DNA of 52,681 nt from a virus. The stretch is taken from the IMG/VR virus record IMGVR_UViG_3300030060_001275, positions 1 to 52,681 of that record. One strand, written 5' to 3'. Below, piece by piece: positions 6,063 to 52,096 of this stretch. Below the pieces are notes generated by a model that made no database searches, was not told where the DNA came from, and saw only the letters and a program-made list of their open reading frames with translations. The first letter of the stretch is position 1. Every line of letters starts with the position of its first letter. Both the position numbers and the translations under genes were made by a program.

Positions 6063-7133
6063 TTATGCCGCATTGTACTTAGCAGTCACAATAGCTTCTG
6101 GACGAAGAATCTTGCGACCATATAAGTGCATACCACGGACAATATCAGCAAAGCTGTCAGGATCACGATATGTCTCAGTTTTATTGATCTGTTGAGCAGT
6201 AGCAACCGCTGAATCGTGACCTGCAACAATAACTCCAAAGTTACTGTTCTGATTTGCTGAACCTGAAGTACCAGCACCAGTTCCAACAGAAGGCAAGTTG
6301 TTAGAAACAATTACACGGAATCCGTGTAGGTTGTTTACTACCAAACCATTCTGAAGACCAGCACCACCAAAGTCTGCGTTTAACAGACGAGAATCTTCAT
6401 CTTTTAGCAGTTCCATGAAGACCGGATCAACAACAAGCCAACGTCCCTGCGTATCAACATACTGCTGATCAAGTAGACGACCCATACGAGAAATAACCTG
6501 AAGAGGAGATGCTGACGCTGTAGCAAGCGCAGTAGCACCCGGTAAACGAGGCACTAATGGGATTGAGTGATCTCCAGCAGAGCCTGTGGTGATATTACCA
6601 AAGCTATCTTTACGAAGCTTCATAGTAGTCAAAAGCTCGTCAGATCCTGCTGTGCTTACAGCTTTACTTCCAGATACCACATCGTTTGCGGTACTGGCAA
6701 CTGCGGATAAAGATGCTTGCTTAAAGCCAGATAAATATCCAAGCACTTCAGCGTCATATTGATCACGAAGACGATATGCCGCACGATCAGAAGCCATCTG
6801 TAAAAAGTTTACATGTGAATGTGCTTCTTCAATGTCATCAATCTTGAAAGCAAAGTAATTTGACTTATCAATGACAAGAGTAAAATCTTCATCATCAAGA
6901 TCTTGAGGGACAATTTGAGCACCACGAGCATACTGTTTAACAGTGATTTCTGGCTCTTTAATAATTTTGACAGAGTCACCCATTTGGGCTATCTCTCCAA
7001 AATAATCATTATTTGTTATGCCTTCTATTACAGAGGCTTTACGAAAAGCAAGCTGCACTTGCTTACTGTAAATAATAGGGCTAAAGTTACCATTTGGTAG
7101 GTTACCATAGCCCGATGCAGTTTGAAATGCCAT
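6063..7133 (-). CDS. Major capsid protein (356 aa)
   Basis: MAFQTASGYGNLPNGNFSP, IYSKQVQLAFRKASVIEGITNNDYFGEI and IKIIKEPEITVKQYARGAQ-type segments match HK97-fold coat proteins of marine podoviruses. The C-terminal part (FRVIVSNNLPSVGTG, IVAGHDSAVATAQQINKTETYRDP) fits the A-domain. It is preceded by the scaffold gene and its own promoter plus a 250-nt leader, consistent with high expression. SD AGGAG lies just before the ATG. Confidence 0.85.
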   Translation of the reverse strand: MAFQTASGYGNLPNGNFSPIIYSKQVQLAFRKASVIEGITNNDYFGEIAQMGDSVKIIKEPEITVKQYARGAQIVPQDLDDEDFTLVIDKSNYFAFKIDDIEEAHSHVNFLQMASDRAAYRLRDQYDAEVLGYLSGFKQASLSAVASTANDVVSGSKAVSTAGSDELLTTMKLRKDSFGNITTGSAGDHSIPLVPRLPGATALATASASPLQVISRMGRLLDQQYVDTQGRWLVVDPVFMELLKDEDSRLLNADFGGAGLQNGLVVNNLHGFRVIVSNNLPSVGTGAGTSGSANQNSNFGVIVAGHDSAVATAQQINKTETYRDPDSFADIVRGMHLYGRKILRPEAIVTAKYNAA

Positions 7134-7383: not shown

Positions 7384-7411
7384 GTTATATCCATAAAAAA
7401 TCATTTGTCAA
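7384..7411 (-). promoter_or_regulatory. Promoter for the capsid gene
   Basis: On the minus strand TTGACA (7406-7411), a 16-bp spacer and TATAAC (7384-7389), followed by TATA. It has the same design as four other sites in this window. It lies between the scaffold and capsid genes and drives leftward transcription. Confidence 0.7.
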
Positions 7412-15577: not shown

Positions 15578-15906
15578 CAGCTTTTGTAACCTCCTCCTGC
15601 TTTTTTATAAGCGGCGGCAAGCATCTGGGCTTTCCGTGCACTCCATTGACCGGATGCTCCACCTTTGCTGCCAGACTTAATGCGGTTAAAGATCCGTTTC
15701 CGTAGGCCGGGTTTGGTATAATTGCCAGCTTCATTGACTCTACTCTTAGGTTTACCTCCCGTTGACATTTTATTAACAGAAGGTTTTGTTTTACCAGCTT
15801 TGGATAAAGCAATTGCCACAGCTTGTTTTTGAGGTTTGCCTTTTTTTATTTCCGTTTTAATATTTTTAGAAATTGTTTTGGAGGATTTACCTCTTTTAAG
15901 CGGCAT
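15577..15906 (-). CDS. Conserved small basic phage protein (109 aa)
   Basis: Two conserved blocks: [29 protein letters not shown], a DUF6496-like pattern, and [19 protein letters not shown], continuing into [19 protein letters not shown]. The latter is frequent in marine phage genomes. The protein is Lys/Gly-rich without hydrophobic segments. It overlaps the SET gene by 11 nt. Function unknown. Confidence 0.65.
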
Positions 15907-16312
15907 TGCTCTTTTCCTCTTCTTCTCTACTATTCCAGTATTCTACACCATAATCATGTGTTATTTCTGTTCCTTTACGTATGTCCTTTAACGCCACAAA
16001 AACAATTAAGTTTTCATTGTTTTCATCTGCACACCACTCAGCGTTTGGATCGTCAGAGTGATTGTAAAGCATGGCATAGCCTAAAGGAGCAATCATACGT
16101 GAATCATTCGTAAAAGGTGTACCGAACATATAATCCTGTAACACGGATGTGGCTTCTACGTCATCATCTTCTATACTAAGAAAAGGACAGTATTCAATTA
16201 CGTCCCCTTTTTTTATAGGAAAAGAAGCGTATACACCAAATCCGTGTATTTCAGATTCTTTTACGTATATGCTGAGCAATGACTTACTTCTTCTTAGTGG
16301 ACATTCCGCCAC
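15896..16312 (-). CDS. SET-domain protein (putative lysine methyltransferase, 138 aa)
   Basis: The SET fold signature is visible: HGFGVYA (residues 23-29) followed by IKKGDVIE, then YNHSDDPN (83-90) and [10 protein letters not shown] (117-126), in the order used for SAM and lysine binding. SET proteins transfer methyl groups from SAM to protein lysines. At 138 aa this is a minimal SET domain without pre- or post-SET cysteines. It lies among Lys-rich small proteins (83, 109 and 64 aa), which are plausible substrates. The fold assignment is fairly secure; substrate and activity are inferred. Confidence 0.75.
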
Positions 16313-19215: not shown

Positions 19216-19243
19216 GTTATATCTACGTAGTTACAAATGTCAA
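19216..19243 (-). promoter_or_regulatory. Leftward promoter proximal to the late operon
   Basis: Minus strand TTGACA (19238-19243), 16-bp spacer, TATAAC (19216-19221) followed by TATG. Same architecture as the capsid promoter. It overlaps the start region of the 72-aa gene. Confidence 0.65.
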
Positions 19244-19461: not shown

Positions 19462-19489
19462 GTTATATCCAGAAAATAAATCTTGTCAA
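19462..19489 (-). promoter_or_regulatory. Leftward promoter distal to the late operon
   Basis: Minus strand TTGACA (19484-19489), 16-bp spacer, TATAAC (19462-19467) followed by TACT. Directly downstream is the inverted repeat CTAATG-N5-CATTAG (19443-19459), placed where an operator overlapping the transcription start would be. Confidence 0.7.
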
Positions 19490-39584: not shown

Positions 39585-39612
39585 TTGACATATTTTTTAA
39601 TATGCGTATAAC
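39585..39612 (+). promoter_or_regulatory. Promoter upstream of nrdB
   Basis: TTGACA (39585-39590), 16-bp spacer, TATAAC (39607-39612) followed by TACT. Same class as the leftward promoters. A terminator lies only ~6 nt after the expected start site. Confidence 0.65.
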
Positions 39613-39624
39613 TACTCTCCTGTT

Positions 39625-39647
39625 GCCCACTTCGGTGGGCTTTTTTT
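39625..39647 (+). terminator. Intrinsic terminator in the nrdB leader
   Basis: GCCCAC-TTCG-GTGGGC then seven T, 25 nt before the nrdB start. It would end both nrdA readthrough and the adjacent promoter's transcript unless overridden. Confidence 0.9.
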
Positions 39648-39672: not shown

Positions 39673-40635
39673 GTGCCACTATTAGAAGAAACTAAAACCT
39701 ACAAGCCTTTTCAGTATCCTTGGGCTGTAGAAAAAGCTATATCACATGAAAAAGTTCACTGGGGTGAATGGGAATGTAAGCTGCAAGATGATGTAGCACA
39801 ATGGGGTAATGGGAAACTGTCAGATGTCGAAAGAAACCATATCACGCAAATACTTAGATTGTTTACGCAATCAGATGTCCAAGTTGGAACTAACTACTTG
39901 GAATGCTATATCCCAAAATTTAAGAACAATGAAATACGTGCGATGCTTACTAGCTTTGCTAACCGTGAATTTGTGCATCAGCGTTCTTATGCTTTACTTA
40001 ATGATACGTTAGGTCTACCGGAAGAAGAGTTCTCAGCCTTTCTAGAATACTCTGAGATGGCAGATAAAATTGAGTTTATGGCTGACATAGACGTAAACAC
40101 TTACAGCGGCTTAGGCAAGGCTGTAGCGCGTTCTGTAATCAATGAAGGTATGTCTTTGTTTAGTGCATTCGTTATGCTACTGAACTACCAAAGATATGGC
40201 AAGATGAGAGGCATGTGTGAGATAGTGGAGTGGTCAGTTCGTGATGAAACTATGCACTGCGAAGGTATGACAAAACTATTTCATACATTCTGTGAGGAAC
40301 ACCCAAGGATTGTTAACGATGAATTTAAAGCAGATATCTATCAAATGGTTAGAGATGCAGTCGCACTTGAAGATAAAGTTATTGACCTTGCGTATGAAAT
40401 GGGAGATCTGGAAGGACTGTCTTCAGACGAAGTTAAACATTATATACGCTACATTGCCGATAGAAGACTTATACAGTTGGGTCTCAAGGGTAATTACAAA
40501 GTTAAAGAAAATCCTTTGCCGTGGGTAGATTGGATTATTGCTGGGGATTCCCATAAGAACTTTTTTGAGGGTGTTGTGACAGACTACAATGCCGCAGGTA
40601 TGGATGGTGATGATTGGGGTTGGCATGCCGCATAG
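39673..40635 (+). CDS. nrdB: Ribonucleotide reductase class I beta subunit (320 aa)
   Basis: Di-iron radical subunit. Ligand pattern: Asp in TQSDVQVGTNY, REFVHQRSY (Glu, His and the radical Tyr in ExxHxxxY), EGMSLFSAF and EWSVRDETMH (ExxH), as in class Ia/b R2. The C-terminus ends TDYNAAGMDGDDWGWHAA, with a Tyr that could relay the radical to NrdA. GTG start preceded by GGAG. Separated from nrdA by a promoter and terminator, unusual for the pair. Confidence 0.9.
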   Translation: MPLLEETKTYKPFQYPWAVEKAISHEKVHWGEWECKLQDDVAQWGNGKLSDVERNHITQILRLFTQSDVQVGTNYLECYIPKFKNNEIRAMLTSFANREFVHQRSYALLNDTLGLPEEEFSAFLEYSEMADKIEFMADIDVNTYSGLGKAVARSVINEGMSLFSAFVMLLNYQRYGKMRGMCEIVEWSVRDETMHCEGMTKLFHTFCEEHPRIVNDEFKADIYQMVRDAVALEDKVIDLAYEMGDLEGLSSDEVKHYIRYIADRRLIQLGLKGNYKVKENPLPWVDWIIAGDSHKNFFEGVVTDYNAAGMDGDDWGWHAA

Positions 40636-40655: not shown

Positions 40656-40683
40656 TTGACTTTTATATTATTTAGTGTATAAC
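40656..40683 (+). promoter_or_regulatory. Promoter for an intergenic small RNA
   Basis: TTGACT (40656-40661), 16-bp spacer, TATAAC (40678-40683) followed by TATTAGTTATA, itself an inverted repeat of the -10 box. No protein gene lies downstream on this strand. Confidence 0.65.
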
Positions 40684-40689
40684 TATTAG

Positions 40690-40785
40690 TTATATGAGAG
40701 AAACTGCTACGGTAGTTTTCCCTCCGCTGTTTGATCTCACCCTCACAGCAAAGAGTACAAGCCCCTCGCAATGAGGGGTTTTTTT
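40690..40785 (+). ncRNA. Putative ~95-nt structured small RNA
   Basis: Between its promoter and a terminator, the predicted RNA folds as a hairpin AAACTGC-TACG-GTAGTTT (7 bp, UACG tetraloop), a second stem GCTGT/ACAGC, and the terminator stem. No ORF with SD is present. It sits between convergent nrdB and the 1374-aa gene, so it is also antisense-adjacent to the end of the late operon. The structure was read by eye; the RNA itself is inferred. Confidence 0.55.
40762..40785 (+). terminator. Intrinsic terminator ending the rightward block
   Basis: CCCCTC-GCAAT-GAGGGG then seven T. The T-tract overlaps the stop codon of the opposite-strand 1374-aa gene. Confidence 0.9.
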
Positions 40786-43700
40786 ATGTGCGTGACATTA
40801 ATCCGCCACGATTCATATCGTTTGATTTAGTCGCAGTAATTAAATCGCCTTTGCTCTGAACATTACCTTCACCAAACACTTCCTCTACACGAGATACATA
40901 GGCACTGGTAGGCTCGTTTCTTTGGTAGCCTTTAGAAGTTGTCTTTCCTTTTCCTGACTTGTCGCCTGCATAAACTGTAAAGTACGCCTTATCACCGGGC
41001 TTGATTGCATTCTCAGCCTGTTGAATAACACGTTTAATGTTTTTGGGTTCTTTAATTACGTTTAATGTATTATTTGATACAGCAACATCAGCACCACCAT
41101 CTGCAACTAATTCTTTAACAACATTGTTGTGATCAGGTGTGCGATTAAATGGATCGTATACTTGTAGCTCAACGTCTTGCTTTGCTAAATCTTCAACTGC
41201 ATTATCAAAACGACCACCACCAATATCTACAACACGTTGACCGGGCTGAAATACTCCCATCTTTTTAAGTTTAGTATACCCAGCAGGTAACTTGCTTTGG
41301 TTAATAGACGTATCAGCAGACGTTACCTTCTGTGTAGGAACGTCCCATAACTCATCTGCATACTTAGATATAGCTTTGACACCTGTCTTTGCGCCTCTAG
41401 CAACCATACCAACACCCGGCACTGCACCTAACGCACCCAATGTCGCCATGCCATAGTCACCTTTTTCAAAGTCTTCTACGGCGGCTTGTGCTGAACGTAT
41501 CTCACCAGTTACAGGTGCGAGGTCAAGACCTAATCCAACCATTTGACGGGTAGTTTCATCTTCTATCTGTTCTTCAGGTTTGATCAGTCCACCTACAAGA
41601 CCACCAGAGTTAAACTGCTTTGTTTTGTATGCTTCTCCTCTCATTAAATACTCAGAGTAATCAGATTTGCTACTAGGAGCACCAAGCTGTTCGTTAATTA
41701 GAGCTCTAACTTCAGAACTAACTTCATTCTCATATTTGAATTTATATATGTCGTTAAGCGTGTAGCCAAACTCTAACTTTATCATTTCTGGAGTAGCACC
41801 GGGATTGCTATCCATAAAATCCTTTACAGGAGGAATTAACAATTCATTTATTACTCTAGAAGATGTTTTACGTACTTCTTCTCTTGCAATAGTTTTAAAT
41901 TCTACAATCTTTTGCTTGTCCGTCATCTTCTGATAGGCATCTCTTTTGATTAGATCATCTAAAACAGGAGTTAATCTTTGAGATACTTCTTGTCTGATTT
42001 TTACATCGGCAGGACCAAATCTAAATCTGCGATATACTTGATATGGTCTAATCTGAAGTCTGTTAGCTTCTTTTTCTACAGCAGTTGCATTCTCAGAAAT
42101 ATTAAGACCAGAAGTCATGGTAGCAATAGGGTTAACTTTTCTTGCTGGTGTTTCCCTCATTATGCTAAATCTAGGCTCTATTTCCTCATAATCAAATCCA
42201 AGACGAGAAAGGCCACTACGGAACGGTCCAAGAGAACGCCCAGCCTTAGCAAACATAATATCCCACGTAGATACTTCTTTGCCTGTTTCTGGTATGAGTC
42301 GCAGTTGCTCATCAGTTAAAGAGTACAAATCTTTAGCTACACTAAGTGGCATCATTAATGTATAAGTATTAAGATAATTTCCTGCTATTTCACCCATAAT
42401 TTGTTTAAACTTTAGTGTGCCTTCCGCCTCTGTGCCTTTAAACGCACCTGCTATCGATGGTAGTGCTTCATTAATAAGTTGAAGTCCACTACCCGCCCTC
42501 ATGGAAGAACCAACTGCTGTCTGTATTAAATCCTGAGAAATACCTACTACATCTGGTTGAGGTTCACCTTTGATCATTTTAAGTGCTGTGTCAGCAAGAT
42601 ATAACTCTAAGTTCATCGGCCCTAAAAAAGGACGCAGATCCTTAGTTCCCTCTTCTCCTATTATCCCTTCCACGTTATACCAAAGTGTTCCGGGATCTTG
42701 TGTATTACGCAGTGCCATAAAAGCACCGACCATACTGAATCCACTAGCCTGCTGTGCAATTCGTTTGGCAACAGAACGCCCAACATAATTTTTACCCGCC
42801 CCAAATCTTTCAAGTGGGATGGCACCAACAATAGGAGCATGTTCATACATAAACTGTATTTGATTGATTACAAAGCGAGGGAAAGGAATAAGCAAACCGG
42901 AAACAAATCCAGCTTCCTTGTCCATTTTTAACCATCCCCTAGCGGCTTGTCCAAATATACCAGTGTCAGCTTTAGGTGTTTTTTGATAGACCATTTCAAA
43001 GGCTTTGTCCATTGCTTGATTAAACAGCTTTGGATTAATCTGATTGAACTTTCCTTCTTTAATAATTTCTATTAGATCTTTGCCTGTGTCTTGTTTTACA
43101 AGTCTACTTAACTCACCTGAAAATGCAGCCTTCTTAAAAAAGTTATCTGACATTTTATTAAAAACATTAAATATATTTCCTATGGACTCAAGTTTTGTTG
43201 GGCTTCCCCCTGCTATTTTTGTAGTCCCGACACCTGCATCAATAAAACTAGAGAAGAATCTTTCATATCCCTCTTTGTCAATGTTCCTATAAAGATCAGC
43301 AATTAGATCTGCCTCTGGCGTGTCTAAAATATATTTAATCATTTCACTAGATTTAAACACAGATCTTTCTTTTATTGGTGTCGCTCCTGCTACACGCGGA
43401 GTAAGTCTATTGTAAAAATATGTAGTGCTTGTCTCAACAGCTTCCTCAAACATATCTAATCCAATACGAGAAGCACCACCAAATACGTTACGCAAAGTAG
43501 TAACAGGCTGAGAAGTCATAATAGAACGGCGAATTCTTTCAAACCCATTTAAATTTTCTTTTAAATTTTGTATGGTTGATTCTTTAATGGCTTCTTTTTG
43601 CAACTTTATGCCGACATCTATGCCCAAGTTCTCCCCAGCCTCAGTAGCAGTTTTAGCTATGCGTTCAATATTAAGAATATTTTTTTCGTTTATAGTTCTC

Positions 43701-44908
43701 TGAGCGCGTAATAATCTAGCGGCATCAGACACAGAAGACAGCATCATATGCTTGACATGCTTTCCATTAAGATTGTACTTGAGCATAATCTCACTATACA
43801 AATCGTCAGCTATGCCATTTTTAGAAAACGCATTGGCAAAATCTTCCGATATTCTTTTTCCGGGTGTTCTAGGTATAACATCGGAAAATTCAAGAAATGC
43901 GGCTTGCATTCTTTTAAACTCTTGGGGAGTAAAAGACAAACGAAACTCAGGATCTATGTTCTCTGCAATATCTGAAAATAATTGATCACCAATTGCTGTG
44001 CTTTCTGGGTCTAGCGGATCAAGCTTTGCATCTTTTTTAGTCGCCTTCTGTGCATCTTTTAGGGCACCCTTCAGAGTCTTACGAACAAGCTTTGTCTCTT
44101 TTTTAGTCGCCTTTTTTGCATCTACTATTTTATCTAATGATCCTAGTGCGTCCTTTACTTCTTTAACTTTTTTAGAATCGGCATTTTTAATTACTTTTTC
44201 TGCTTCAGTAAGAGCTACGCTATCAAGTGCTTCTGCCGCTTCCTCTCCCTGCGCTTTCAGTATGTCAGCCTGCTGTGACTTTTTTCCTAGTCTTAAAGCA
44301 TTAAATCCACCGAAAGTGACACCGGGAATAGCAGATGCAGCAGTGGTTAAGGCAAATTCTTTACCACTAAAGTCTCTCTCTGGGTCTAATTCCATTCGTG
44401 TGCCTTGCTGTGCCACGTTCTGCCCAGCACCAATAACACCCTCCGTTATACCTGCTCTTAGGGCACCCTTCAGAGTCTTACGAACAAGTAATTTAGTAGC
44501 TGATTGCCCTGCTATAGAGGCTACCTTGCCACTTCCCCCTGTAAGTATCCCTAACCAAGTGGATGGTGCAGTGGCAATACCTGTGGTGTAATCTACGGCC
44601 TTATCTACAAAATCTTCTGTGCTCATTTCCGATTTGTCGTAGACATCAAAAAGACGACCCATCTCAGCTTTGCTTTCTTCATCAGCTTCTTGGGCGTACA
44701 AAAGATCACTAATAGTAGAAACTTCGTTCACATCGTGATATCTCATACGCTGTTGAAATTCTTCGTATATCTCATCGGGATCTGTTAGGTCTAGCTCCCC
44801 TTTACTGCTTTTATACAAATAGTTTGCGGCATCGTCTAAAAAATCTTCATTAACAACCAGATTTTCCCTATTGATATCTTTAGAAGCTAGATAATTGTAA
44901 CTTTTCAT
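40784..44908 (-). CDS. Large internal virion protein with C-terminal SAM methyltransferase domain (1374 aa)
   Basis: Very long, mostly helical protein at the place of podovirus ejected internal proteins (T7 gp14-16 region). Residues 1-~1150 are helical with charged coiled coils and an Ala/Gly segment near 150-200. An NSGGLVGGL motif precedes the C-terminal domain. Residues ~1205-1365 look like a class I methyltransferase: VVDIGGGRFDNA (motif I, 1226 on), LQVYDPF, and ADVAVSNNTLNVI (motif IV-like). It ends MNRGGLMSRT. Probably injected with DNA; the methyltransferase substrate is unknown. Confidence 0.7.
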   Translation of the reverse strand: MKSYNYLASKDINRENLVVNEDFLDDAANYLYKSSKGELDLTDPDEIYEEFQQRMRYHDVNEVSTISDLLYAQEADEESKAEMGRLFDVYDKSEMSTEDFVDKAVDYTTGIATAPSTWLGILTGGSGKVASIAGQSATKLLVRKTLKGALRAGITEGVIGAGQNVAQQGTRMELDPERDFSGKEFALTTAASAIPGVTFGGFNALRLGKKSQQADILKAQGEEAAEALDSVALTEAEKVIKNADSKKVKEVKDALGSLDKIVDAKKATKKETKLVRKTLKGALKDAQKATKKDAKLDPLDPESTAIGDQLFSDIAENIDPEFRLSFTPQEFKRMQAAFLEFSDVIPRTPGKRISEDFANAFSKNGIADDLYSEIMLKYNLNGKHVKHMMLSSVSDAARLLRAQRTINEKNILNIERIAKTATEAGENLGIDVGIKLQKEAIKESTIQNLKENLNGFERIRRSIMTSQPVTTLRNVFGGASRIGLDMFEEAVETSTTYFYNRLTPRVAGATPIKERSVFKSSEMIKYILDTPEADLIADLYRNIDKEGYERFFSSFIDAGVGTTKIAGGSPTKLESIGNIFNVFNKMSDNFFKKAAFSGELSRLVKQDTGKDLIEIIKEGKFNQINPKLFNQAMDKAFEMVYQKTPKADTGIFGQAARGWLKMDKEAGFVSGLLIPFPRFVINQIQFMYEHAPIVGAIPLERFGAGKNYVGRSVAKRIAQQASGFSMVGAFMALRNTQDPGTLWYNVEGIIGEEGTKDLRPFLGPMNLELYLADTALKMIKGEPQPDVVGISQDLIQTAVGSSMRAGSGLQLINEALPSIAGAFKGTEAEGTLKFKQIMGEIAGNYLNTYTLMMPLSVAKDLYSLTDEQLRLIPETGKEVSTWDIMFAKAGRSLGPFRSGLSRLGFDYEEIEPRFSIMRETPARKVNPIATMTSGLNISENATAVEKEANRLQIRPYQVYRRFRFGPADVKIRQEVSQRLTPVLDDLIKRDAYQKMTDKQKIVEFKTIAREEVRKTSSRVINELLIPPVKDFMDSNPGATPEMIKLEFGYTLNDIYKFKYENEVSSEVRALINEQLGAPSSKSDYSEYLMRGEAYKTKQFNSGGLVGGLIKPEEQIEDETTRQMVGLGLDLAPVTGEIRSAQAAVEDFEKGDYGMATLGALGAVPGVGMVARGAKTGVKAISKYADELWDVPTQKVTSADTSINQSKLPAGYTKLKKMGVFQPGQRVVDIGGGRFDNAVEDLAKQDVELQVYDPFNRTPDHNNVVKELVADGGADVAVSNNTLNVIKEPKNIKRVIQQAENAIKPGDKAYFTVYAGDKSGKGKTTSKGYQRNEPTSAYVSRVEEVFGEGNVQSKGDLITATKSNDMNRGGLMSRT
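44060..44488 (-). repeat. 30-nt exact direct repeat within the 1374-aa gene
   Basis: The 30 bases at 44060-44089 and 44459-44488 are identical and encode LVRKTLKGAL twice. The perfect nucleotide match, with unrelated flanks, points to a recent duplication or gene conversion. Confidence 0.8.
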
Positions 44909-50802: not shown

Positions 50803-51008
50803 TATGATGCCTGTGATATAAGGGCAACTACTGCTCCTAATACTGCAATTACATTAAGCATGACCATTGCTTCAAGTCTCCATAATCTTTTATCTAAACT
50901 ATTTAACTTATCATGCACATAACTATATCTAATAGCACACTCAGCTTCATGTTTTTCTAACTGAAGTTTTGTTTCCATTTCTAAACTAGGCTCTTGCTTT
51001 AATTTCAT
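50802..51008 (-). CDS. XhlA-like lysis accessory protein (68 aa)
   Basis: A coiled-coil start with YSYVHDKLNSLDKRLWRLEA, then a C-terminal membrane helix (MVMLNVIAVLGAVVALISQA). This is the layout of XhlA-type haemolysin/holin accessory proteins. Sits at the head of the lysis group. Confidence 0.6.
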   Translation of the reverse strand: MKLKQEPSLEMETKLQLEKHEAECAIRYSYVHDKLNSLDKRLWRLEAMVMLNVIAVLGAVVALISQAS

Positions 51009-52096
51009 TATGCCGCTACATCCTCACGCATTTTAATTGGATTGGATGGTGATCTATCCAACCACTTACCCCACTCAGCATAGTAATGACGCATTCCTAC
51101 TTCATCGTGTATAGTTTCATTTTCATGTCTAGCATGAAGAATATTTCTTTTTTCTGTACCTTCACGCATGGTTGTGCCCTGACCAGATACACCAATCAGA
51201 TCCTCGTGCAGATTACGTCCGAATGGACCCCATATTGAATTGTGATGTTTGATACGAGTTTGTCTTTCTTTTTCTGTGTCTTTTTTAAGTCCGTATCCAC
51301 GAAACTCAATTAATACTTTATTTGGTCCAAGAGGTGTTACACTGTCTGAACGGTATGCACTACCACGTAGGTTAAAGTTAAAGCCGGGAAACAGATCTAC
51401 CATGTACCACTGATTAGGTGGCAAGTTAGGGAAGCTAAGTTCCCCTCTATCTTCAAATCCCTCATACTCTTCGTAATTCACAGTGAATGAACTTACGTTA
51501 ACATGCCCGTTATCAAACGGAATATTCTTACGTGCAAAATACTCTTCATTAAATCCACTGACTCTATTAAAGTAGTGCATAAAATCGTGATAAAACTCAC
51601 TGTTGGTATCATGCCAAAGTTTATAGTTAGTATCTATAATAGATTTATGATAATGGAATACTTCCATTTCTTCTGAATCAATTGCATCTGCAATACAGTC
51701 AAATGCACCTGCTGTCCATTCTTCTACACTCATAATAGGATTAGGGTCAAGGGTGACCCAAACCATACCGCCATGCTTAACTTCGCAATAAAGTTCACTT
51801 TTACCTAAAATATTTTTAATAGGCACTTTTCCTGCTGGTCCTGTGTATCGTGAATCGTTGTACACAGCCCTAACATCAGTTCCAGTATTAATAACAGCTA
51901 TATTTTTAAATGCAATTTGCGATGTTCTGTAGCTTCCTATATCTGACATTTCACTTATATGACAAACAGGAACCCATACTTTAGAAAAAATGTTTTCAAT
52001 TTCTTCATCAAATATCTGTTGATTGTTGTAACACTCACTACTGATATGTTCTATCTTTGGTGTCTTATTCCACTGTTTATAATTACGTGCTGGCAT
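51008..52096 (-). CDS. Rieske-type oxygenase alpha-subunit-like protein (MsmA-like) lacking Rieske ligands (362 aa)
   Basis: Overall order and the start (FDEEIENIFSKVWVPVCHIS) match ring-hydroxylating/methanesulfonate monooxygenase alpha subunits; HMO-2011 is reported to carry such a gene. In the Rieske domain, the CxH site reads YNDSRYTG and the CxxH site reads CEVKHGG (C104, H108), so the iron-sulfur ligands are missing or misplaced. The mononuclear iron motif is partly kept: EFYHDFMH (H170, H174) and a late HEDLIGVSGQG with an Asp. Probably altered or non-oxygenase function. Confidence 0.75.
   Translation of the reverse strand: MPARNYKQWNKTPKIEHISSECYNNQQIFDEEIENIFSKVWVPVCHISEMSDIGSYRTSQIAFKNIAVINTGTDVRAVYNDSRYTGPAGKVPIKNILGKSELYCEVKHGGMVWVTLDPNPIMSVEEWTAGAFDCIADAIDSEEMEVFHYHKSIIDTNYKLWHDTNSEFYHDFMHYFNRVSGFNEEYFARKNIPFDNGHVNVSSFTVNYEEYEGFEDRGELSFPNLPPNQWYMVDLFPGFNFNLRGSAYRSDSVTPLGPNKVLIEFRGYGLKKDTEKERQTRIKHHNSIWGPFGRNLHEDLIGVSGQGTTMREGTEKRNILHARHENETIHDEVGMRHYYAEWGKWLDRSPSNPIKMREDVAA

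What the first reader, a model, noticed from the sequence alone, without database searches (positions are those of the whole stretch)
40656..40785. Orphan promoter - structured small RNA - terminator unit between convergent operons
A TTGACT-N16-TATAAC promoter is followed by ~95 nt with a UACG-capped 7-bp hairpin, another stem and an intrinsic terminator, and no protein gene downstream. This is the anatomy of a phage small RNA. It could regulate host or phage mRNAs, or control convergence with the late operon.
Basis: partly seen in the sequence, partly recalled or inferred. Interest (0 to 1): 0.75.

Follow-up and report, generated by a model that had tools for sequence, protein, structure and literature searches.

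The report
Unannotated phage small RNA family
A marine bacteriophage carries a short, folded RNA gene with its own start and stop signals; close relatives keep the same RNA, or swap it for a ribosome-factor gene ending in a similar RNA, so it is probably a working regulator rather than chance sequence.

Summary
At 40656-40785 a TTGACT-N16-TATAAC promoter is followed by a ~96-nt RNA (two hairpins and a GCAAU-loop terminator) whose T-run overlaps the stop codon of the convergent late gene. It is conserved: 14 distinct versions from 19 IMG/VR contigs plus the window, all phages of this HMO-2011-type, class I RNR group. The stems are kept through compensatory changes (98.5% of cells paired, 15 double-changed cells, 0/500 shuffles as high). 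No conserved ORF, no Rfam family, no match to a strict pattern in GTDB genomes. So it is a real, unannotated phage small RNA family.

New: the slot has alternative alleles. In sister phages the same promoter drives a Pfam-RMF (ribosome modulation factor) gene whose 3' end is a related element (CCCACCCGC, hairpin, same terminator); others keep that element without the ORF. Alleles are interspersed on the nrdB tree. In type II transcripts the 3' hairpin loop is complementary to the leader, in rmf mRNAs reaching into the Shine-Dalgarno (0/500 shuffled leaders as strong).

Most likely it is a base-pairing regulator acting on ribosome-binding sites; no target is shown. No phage mRNA stood out, the host is unknown, and no transcript data exist.

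The parts
40656..40683 (+). promoter TTGACT-N16-TATAAC
   Evidence: the TTGAC/TATAAC pattern is conserved in 13 of the 14 distinct type I sequences, L035 lacks it
40678..40694 (.). palindrome TATAACTA-T-TAGTTATA over the -10 and start region, possible operator (function inferred)
   Evidence: intact in only part of the family by eye
40690..40785 (+). small RNA, start site inferred
40696..40724 (+). hairpin 1, covarying stem, UACG loop here
40717..40727 (+). conserved C-rich patch UUUCCCUCCGC, partly paired
40726..40749 (+). hairpin 2, invariant 5-bp stem GCUGU/ACAGC with open loop holding invariant CUCAC (40736-40740)
40759..40785 (+). intrinsic terminator with GCAAU loop; T-run overlaps the stop codon of the convergent gene
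39673..40635 (+). nrdB, RNR small subunit, upstream neighbour
40784..44908 (-). convergent 1374-aa late gene

Best explanation
A genuine phage-encoded small noncoding RNA: its own promoter, ~96 nt, two hairpins, intrinsic terminator (shown in sequence and by conservation; transcription itself inferred). It belongs to an undescribed RNA family at the meeting point of the early and late operons in nrdAB-bearing HMO-2011-type phages. The family has two related forms: a stand-alone RNA (type I, this window) and an element (type II) that is either the 3' end of an RMF-family mRNA or stands alone. Most likely mechanism (inferred): the C-rich patch UUUCCC-CC-GC and the open loop CUCAC base-pair with purine-rich ribosome-binding sites of host or phage mRNAs and lower their translation during infection. 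Support for pairing as the element's job is that the type II hairpin loop is complementary to its own transcript's leader, reaching into the Shine-Dalgarno in rmf mRNAs.
For: Same unit in 17 of the 35 closest nrdB loci, related unit in 15 more plus one cut inside the ORF. Compensatory changes: 15 double-changed cells, 0/500 shuffles as high; sliding controls fail; type II likewise. Two covariance models find each other's family. Loop CUCAC invariant and about 90% unpaired in 14 sequences. Leader-loop complementarity in type II: mean -8.5 kcal/mol against -4.2 for shuffled leaders, 0/500; 109/5000 leader permutations as low. No conserved ORF.
Against: No transcript data. No phage ortholog group stands out as target. 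The leader-loop test is not significant for type I (20/300) and fails for L007 and L010 in type II. Number of pairs with double change and of pair types do not exceed shuffles on A1 (279/500, 356/500), and hairpin 2 never varies. CCCUCC is partly paired in the predicted fold. The C-rich patch matches strong Shine-Dalgarno sites in general. L035 has the RNA without a recognisable promoter.
Confidence: 0.6

Rival explanations
1. Boundary element only: the promoter and terminator stop read-through or set up collision between the convergent operons; the RNA is a by-product without a target.
For: Position between convergent operons; T-run overlaps the stop codon of the late gene. The terminator is the most conserved shared part of types I and II.
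Against: A terminator alone needs no promoter, no covarying first hairpin and no invariant open loop. Related isolates manage with gaps of 22-157 bp and no such RNA.
Confidence: 0.2
2. Relic of an rmf gene: the ORF was lost and the leftover promoter and 3' UTR decay neutrally.
For: RMF-like genes sit near the end of the early operon in HMO-2011, CRP-345, CRP-1 and MW202701, and ORF-less type II loci exist.
Against: Type I has an additional covarying hairpin and recurs across the tree interspersed with RMF alleles; neutral decay would not keep 98.5% of cells paired.
Confidence: 0.07
3. A small protein gene on either strand.
For: The window RNA holds a 26-codon ORF, as does L005; a 42-aa antisense ORF is listed.
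Against: The 26-codon ORF is in 2 of 14 sequences; L001 reads ATG AGA TAA; loop indels shift the frame; antisense frames differ too.
Confidence: 0.03

Closest known systems
Phage-encoded trans-acting sRNAs with short genes (PreS of lambda, VpdS of VP882, sar of P22, DicF of Qin; table in PMC12197685, read)
   Same: short noncoding phage RNA of roughly 50-100 nt; expected to act on mRNAs
   Different: no target known here; marine HMO-2011-type phage; the slot alternates with an RMF-family gene; nothing in the table is described as related in sequence
3'UTR-derived small RNAs (e.g. CisR in PMC13250501, abstract start seen in the listing)
   Same: the type II element is the 3' end and terminator of an mRNA and can also stand alone
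   Different: type I has its own promoter and no ORF; processing unknown
Rfam BjrC1505 (RF02356), alphaproteobacterial sRNA
   Same: sub-threshold full-length match, 22.6 bits, E 0.015-0.021
   Different: gathering score is 50; the match aligns the promoter region and the terminator and skips most of the RNA

Membership tests
Phage-encoded small RNA gene | own promoter and intrinsic terminator | tested here: met
   conserved in 13 of 14 distinct sequences, promoter missing in L035
Phage-encoded small RNA gene | conserved structure with compensatory change | tested here: met
   type II
Phage-encoded small RNA gene | no conserved ORF | tested here: met
Phage-encoded small RNA gene | transcript seen | not testable with these tools
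Trans-acting base-pairing sRNA | conserved target complementarity | tested here: inconclusive
   no target in 10 phages; leader-loop pairing in type II; generic Shine-Dalgarno match
cis-antisense phage RNA (OOP-like) | overlaps the target gene on the other strand | tested here: not met
   only the last two bases of the T-run overlap the 1374-aa gene
Rfam BjrC1505 | score at or above gathering | tested here: not met
   22.6 against 50 bits
CCUCCUCCC-motif sRNAs of alphaproteobacteria (CcsR/cuckoo, name recalled) | CCUCCUCCC motif in a loop (recalled) | tested here: not met
   motif absent from all 14 aligned members, read from the alignment

The most novel reading that the evidence does not exclude
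One phage locus holds interchangeable protein and RNA solutions to the same job: some phages make an RMF-family ribosome factor, sisters make an sRNA instead, and both lower translation initiation by interfering with the Shine-Dalgarno step (RMF on the ribosome, as recalled from E. coli work; the RNA by masking purine-rich start sites). The stand-alone RNA would have arisen from the structured 3' end of the rmf mRNA.
Probability: 0.12. Interest if true: 0.85.

Novelty: new member of a known kind. Interest (0 to 1): 0.5.

Why it matters
HMO-2011-type phages are described as dominant and broadly distributed in the ocean (abstract start of PMC9038755), yet regulatory RNAs in them seem undescribed: that paper's main text has no hit for small RNA, noncoding, promoter or terminator. 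A conserved small RNA that trades places with a ribosome modulation factor gene gives a concrete handle on how such phages control translation, and a natural series (rmf with 3' element, element alone, type I RNA) in which the birth of an sRNA from an mRNA 3' end could be tested.

Tried and rejected
Rfam at gathering score found only tRNA-Cys in the window; sub-threshold matches were rejected. Blastn in 50,697 phage records gave 36 records with matches covering none of the RNA well; the rows listed lie on the AT-rich promoter stretch. A strict pattern in GTDB genome contigs gave 0 stretches. The terminase scan of genome contigs gave 6 loci, all in MAGs; two pairs carry a same-length contig with the same match under two unrelated organisms, so I take them as binned phage contigs and no host follows. 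The target search ranked start regions in 10 phages; the best clusters do not stand out for the number tested. Peptide and antisense-ORF readings were rejected. The ~370-bp gap after the class II RNR in CRP-1 and CRP-345 was checked as a possible RNA and holds ORFs. RNA anti-CRISPR was considered from memory and not tested. The transcription start is inferred.

Full report
What is there. The window is a 52,681-base virus record of an HMO-2011-type phage: family A DNA polymerase with a DnaJ-like insert (Pfam DnaJ match below its cut-off), integrase, class I RNR genes (class I follows from the nrdA/nrdB pair), terminase 75-78% identical to CRP-345, CRP-1 and HMO-2011. Between nrdB (39673-40635, +) and a 1374-aa late gene (40784-44908, -) lies TTGACT-N16-TATAAC, a ~96-nt stretch and an intrinsic terminator. 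The strand folds better than 200 of 200 shuffles.

Conservation. NrdB was used to fetch relatives: 303 stretches matched, the best 80 were kept. I read the downstream DNA of these 80 (part of the first output was cut and reprinted). Of the 35 with NrdB identity of 87% or more (L001-L035), 17 carry the type I RNA, 11 carry an RMF-like ORF (10 with the complete 3' element; L009 ends inside the ORF), 5 carry the type II element without ORF, and 2 end too soon (L018, L021). In L005 the RNA lies about 740 bases after nrdB with another ORF between. Pattern scans found type I in 19 IMG/VR contigs: of the 72 stretches those without the terminator were dropped, being chance matches to the short pattern. 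The 14 distinct sequences, window included, are alignment A1. Of the 21 stretches from the type II pattern, six printed ones (L168, L172, L174, L178, L180, L184) lack the terminator and were dropped.

Structure test. On A1 98.5% of cells pair; 15 cells change on both sides (0/500 shuffles as high); sliding the partner drops pairing to 38-56%. The window itself carries G-U at a pair that is A-U or G-C in relatives. Against this, the number of pairs with double change and the number of pair types do not exceed the shuffles (279/500, 356/500), and hairpin 2 never varies, so its stem is untested. On A2 (type II, 8 sequences) 98.2% of cells pair and 5 pairs have double changes (1/500).

Distribution. 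Models R1 and R2 were run over 94 of the sources then held. R1 finds type I at 83-116 bits and type II at 26-34 bits. R2 finds type II at 87-102 bits and type I at 29-42 bits. Outside L001-L035, their duplicates and the already known L082, L099 and L185, only L042 is found at the same place (R1 E 0.003, R2 E 9e-7). R2 also gives L038 and L047 at E 0.007, upstream of nrdB, which I do not count; weaker rows (E 0.3 and above) I take as chance. Known isolates CRP-1, CRP-2, CRP-13, CRP-345, CRP-603 and HMO-2011 have one RNR gene (annotated as adenosylcobalamin-dependent in CRP-1, CRP-2 and CRP-13), a convergent gap of 22-157 bp and no model match. A strict pattern had 0 matches in the GTDB contig collection. 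No Rfam family reaches its gathering score here.

The RMF allele. Three ORFs were scanned against Pfam: two RMF-like ORFs from sister loci match RMF (PF04957) at 1.8e-7 (above cut-off) and 6.1e-6 (just below it), and the L036 ORF only at 0.14. tblastn places relatives in HMO-2011, CRP-345, CRP-1 and MW202701 near the end of the early operon, and none in the window or in the type I contigs G013 (45 kb) and G001 (42 kb) at E 1e-3. On an nrdB tree of 37 rows the type I label needs 7 changes (shuffled mean 12.4; 4/500 as low) and the RMF label 5, so the alleles are clustered but alternate repeatedly, e.g. L013 (type I) amid L024 and L010. I read this as recombination in and out of one slot with shared promoter and terminator; the direction of change is not shown.

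Pairing evidence. In type II transcripts the 5' leader is complementary to the 3' hairpin loop (e.g. L008 CUAUACGGA with UCCGUAUAG, inside the rmf ribosome-binding region; L185 AUGCAGAC with GUCUGUAU). Mean duplex energy is -8.5 kcal/mol, against -4.2 for shuffled leaders (0/500 as low) and -7.2 for leaders swapped between phages (109/5000 permutations as low); L007 and L010 do not show it. For type I the same test is not significant (20/300). Type I's C-rich patch against rmf leaders ranks among the best 5-58 of 523 phage start regions for the two CCCUCC seeds and 21-239 of 523 for the CCCACC seed. Across 10 phages no ortholog group stands out as a target. So pairing with ribosome-binding sites is plausible and not proven.

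Verdict. The RNA is real at the level of sequence evolution; a base-pairing regulatory role is the best mechanism I can offer. What would be new is the family itself and its trade with an RMF gene. Literature searches for phage sRNA with HMO-2011, for HMO-2011-type or ribosome modulation factor, for phage with RMF, and for phage-encoded hibernation factors listed no paper whose title or abstract start describes this; only PMC9038755 was searched inside for it, and of PMC12197685 I read the outline with abstract and the section of figures and tables. Most subscription papers are not in that library, so absence from print is not shown.

Noticed in passing
window 39585-39647: A second promoter-then-terminator unit lies just upstream of nrdB: TTGACA..TATAAC followed within ~20 nt by GCCCACTTCGGTGGGC-T7. 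The promoter followed by a T-run is present in 35 of 35 nearest loci, with TGAGTATAACTACT over the -10 in 27 of 35. Looks like an operator plus attenuator, or a ~30-nt RNA.
   Followed up: partly
window 40678-40694: Perfect 8-bp palindrome TATAACTA-T-TAGTTATA over the -10 and start of the small RNA promoter; possible operator.
   Followed up: no
window 7384-7411, 19216-19243 and 19462-19489, all on -: Further exact promoters of the same consensus (TTGACA-N16-TATAACTA), the first about 250 nt upstream of the gene at 6063-7133.
   Followed up: no
window 51008-52096 (-): Ring-hydroxylating oxygenase alpha-subunit domain (Pfam PF00848, E 7.7e-6) in a phage.
   Followed up: no
window 15896-16312 (-): SET-domain protein (PF00856, E 3.8e-18) encoded among late phage genes.
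   Followed up: no
window 40784-44908 (-): The C-terminal part of the large late protein has a methyltransferase-like stretch (PF13489, below cut-off) that also matches an uncultured 485-kb phage record at 41%.
   Followed up: no
L187-L190: Same-length phage contigs with the same match appear under a Flavobacteriales MAG and a Neomarinimicrobiota MAG: phage contigs binned into unrelated genomes.
   Followed up: no
L191 14830-15174: Group I intron (Rfam RF00028, 50.5 bits) in a related phage contig.
   Followed up: no
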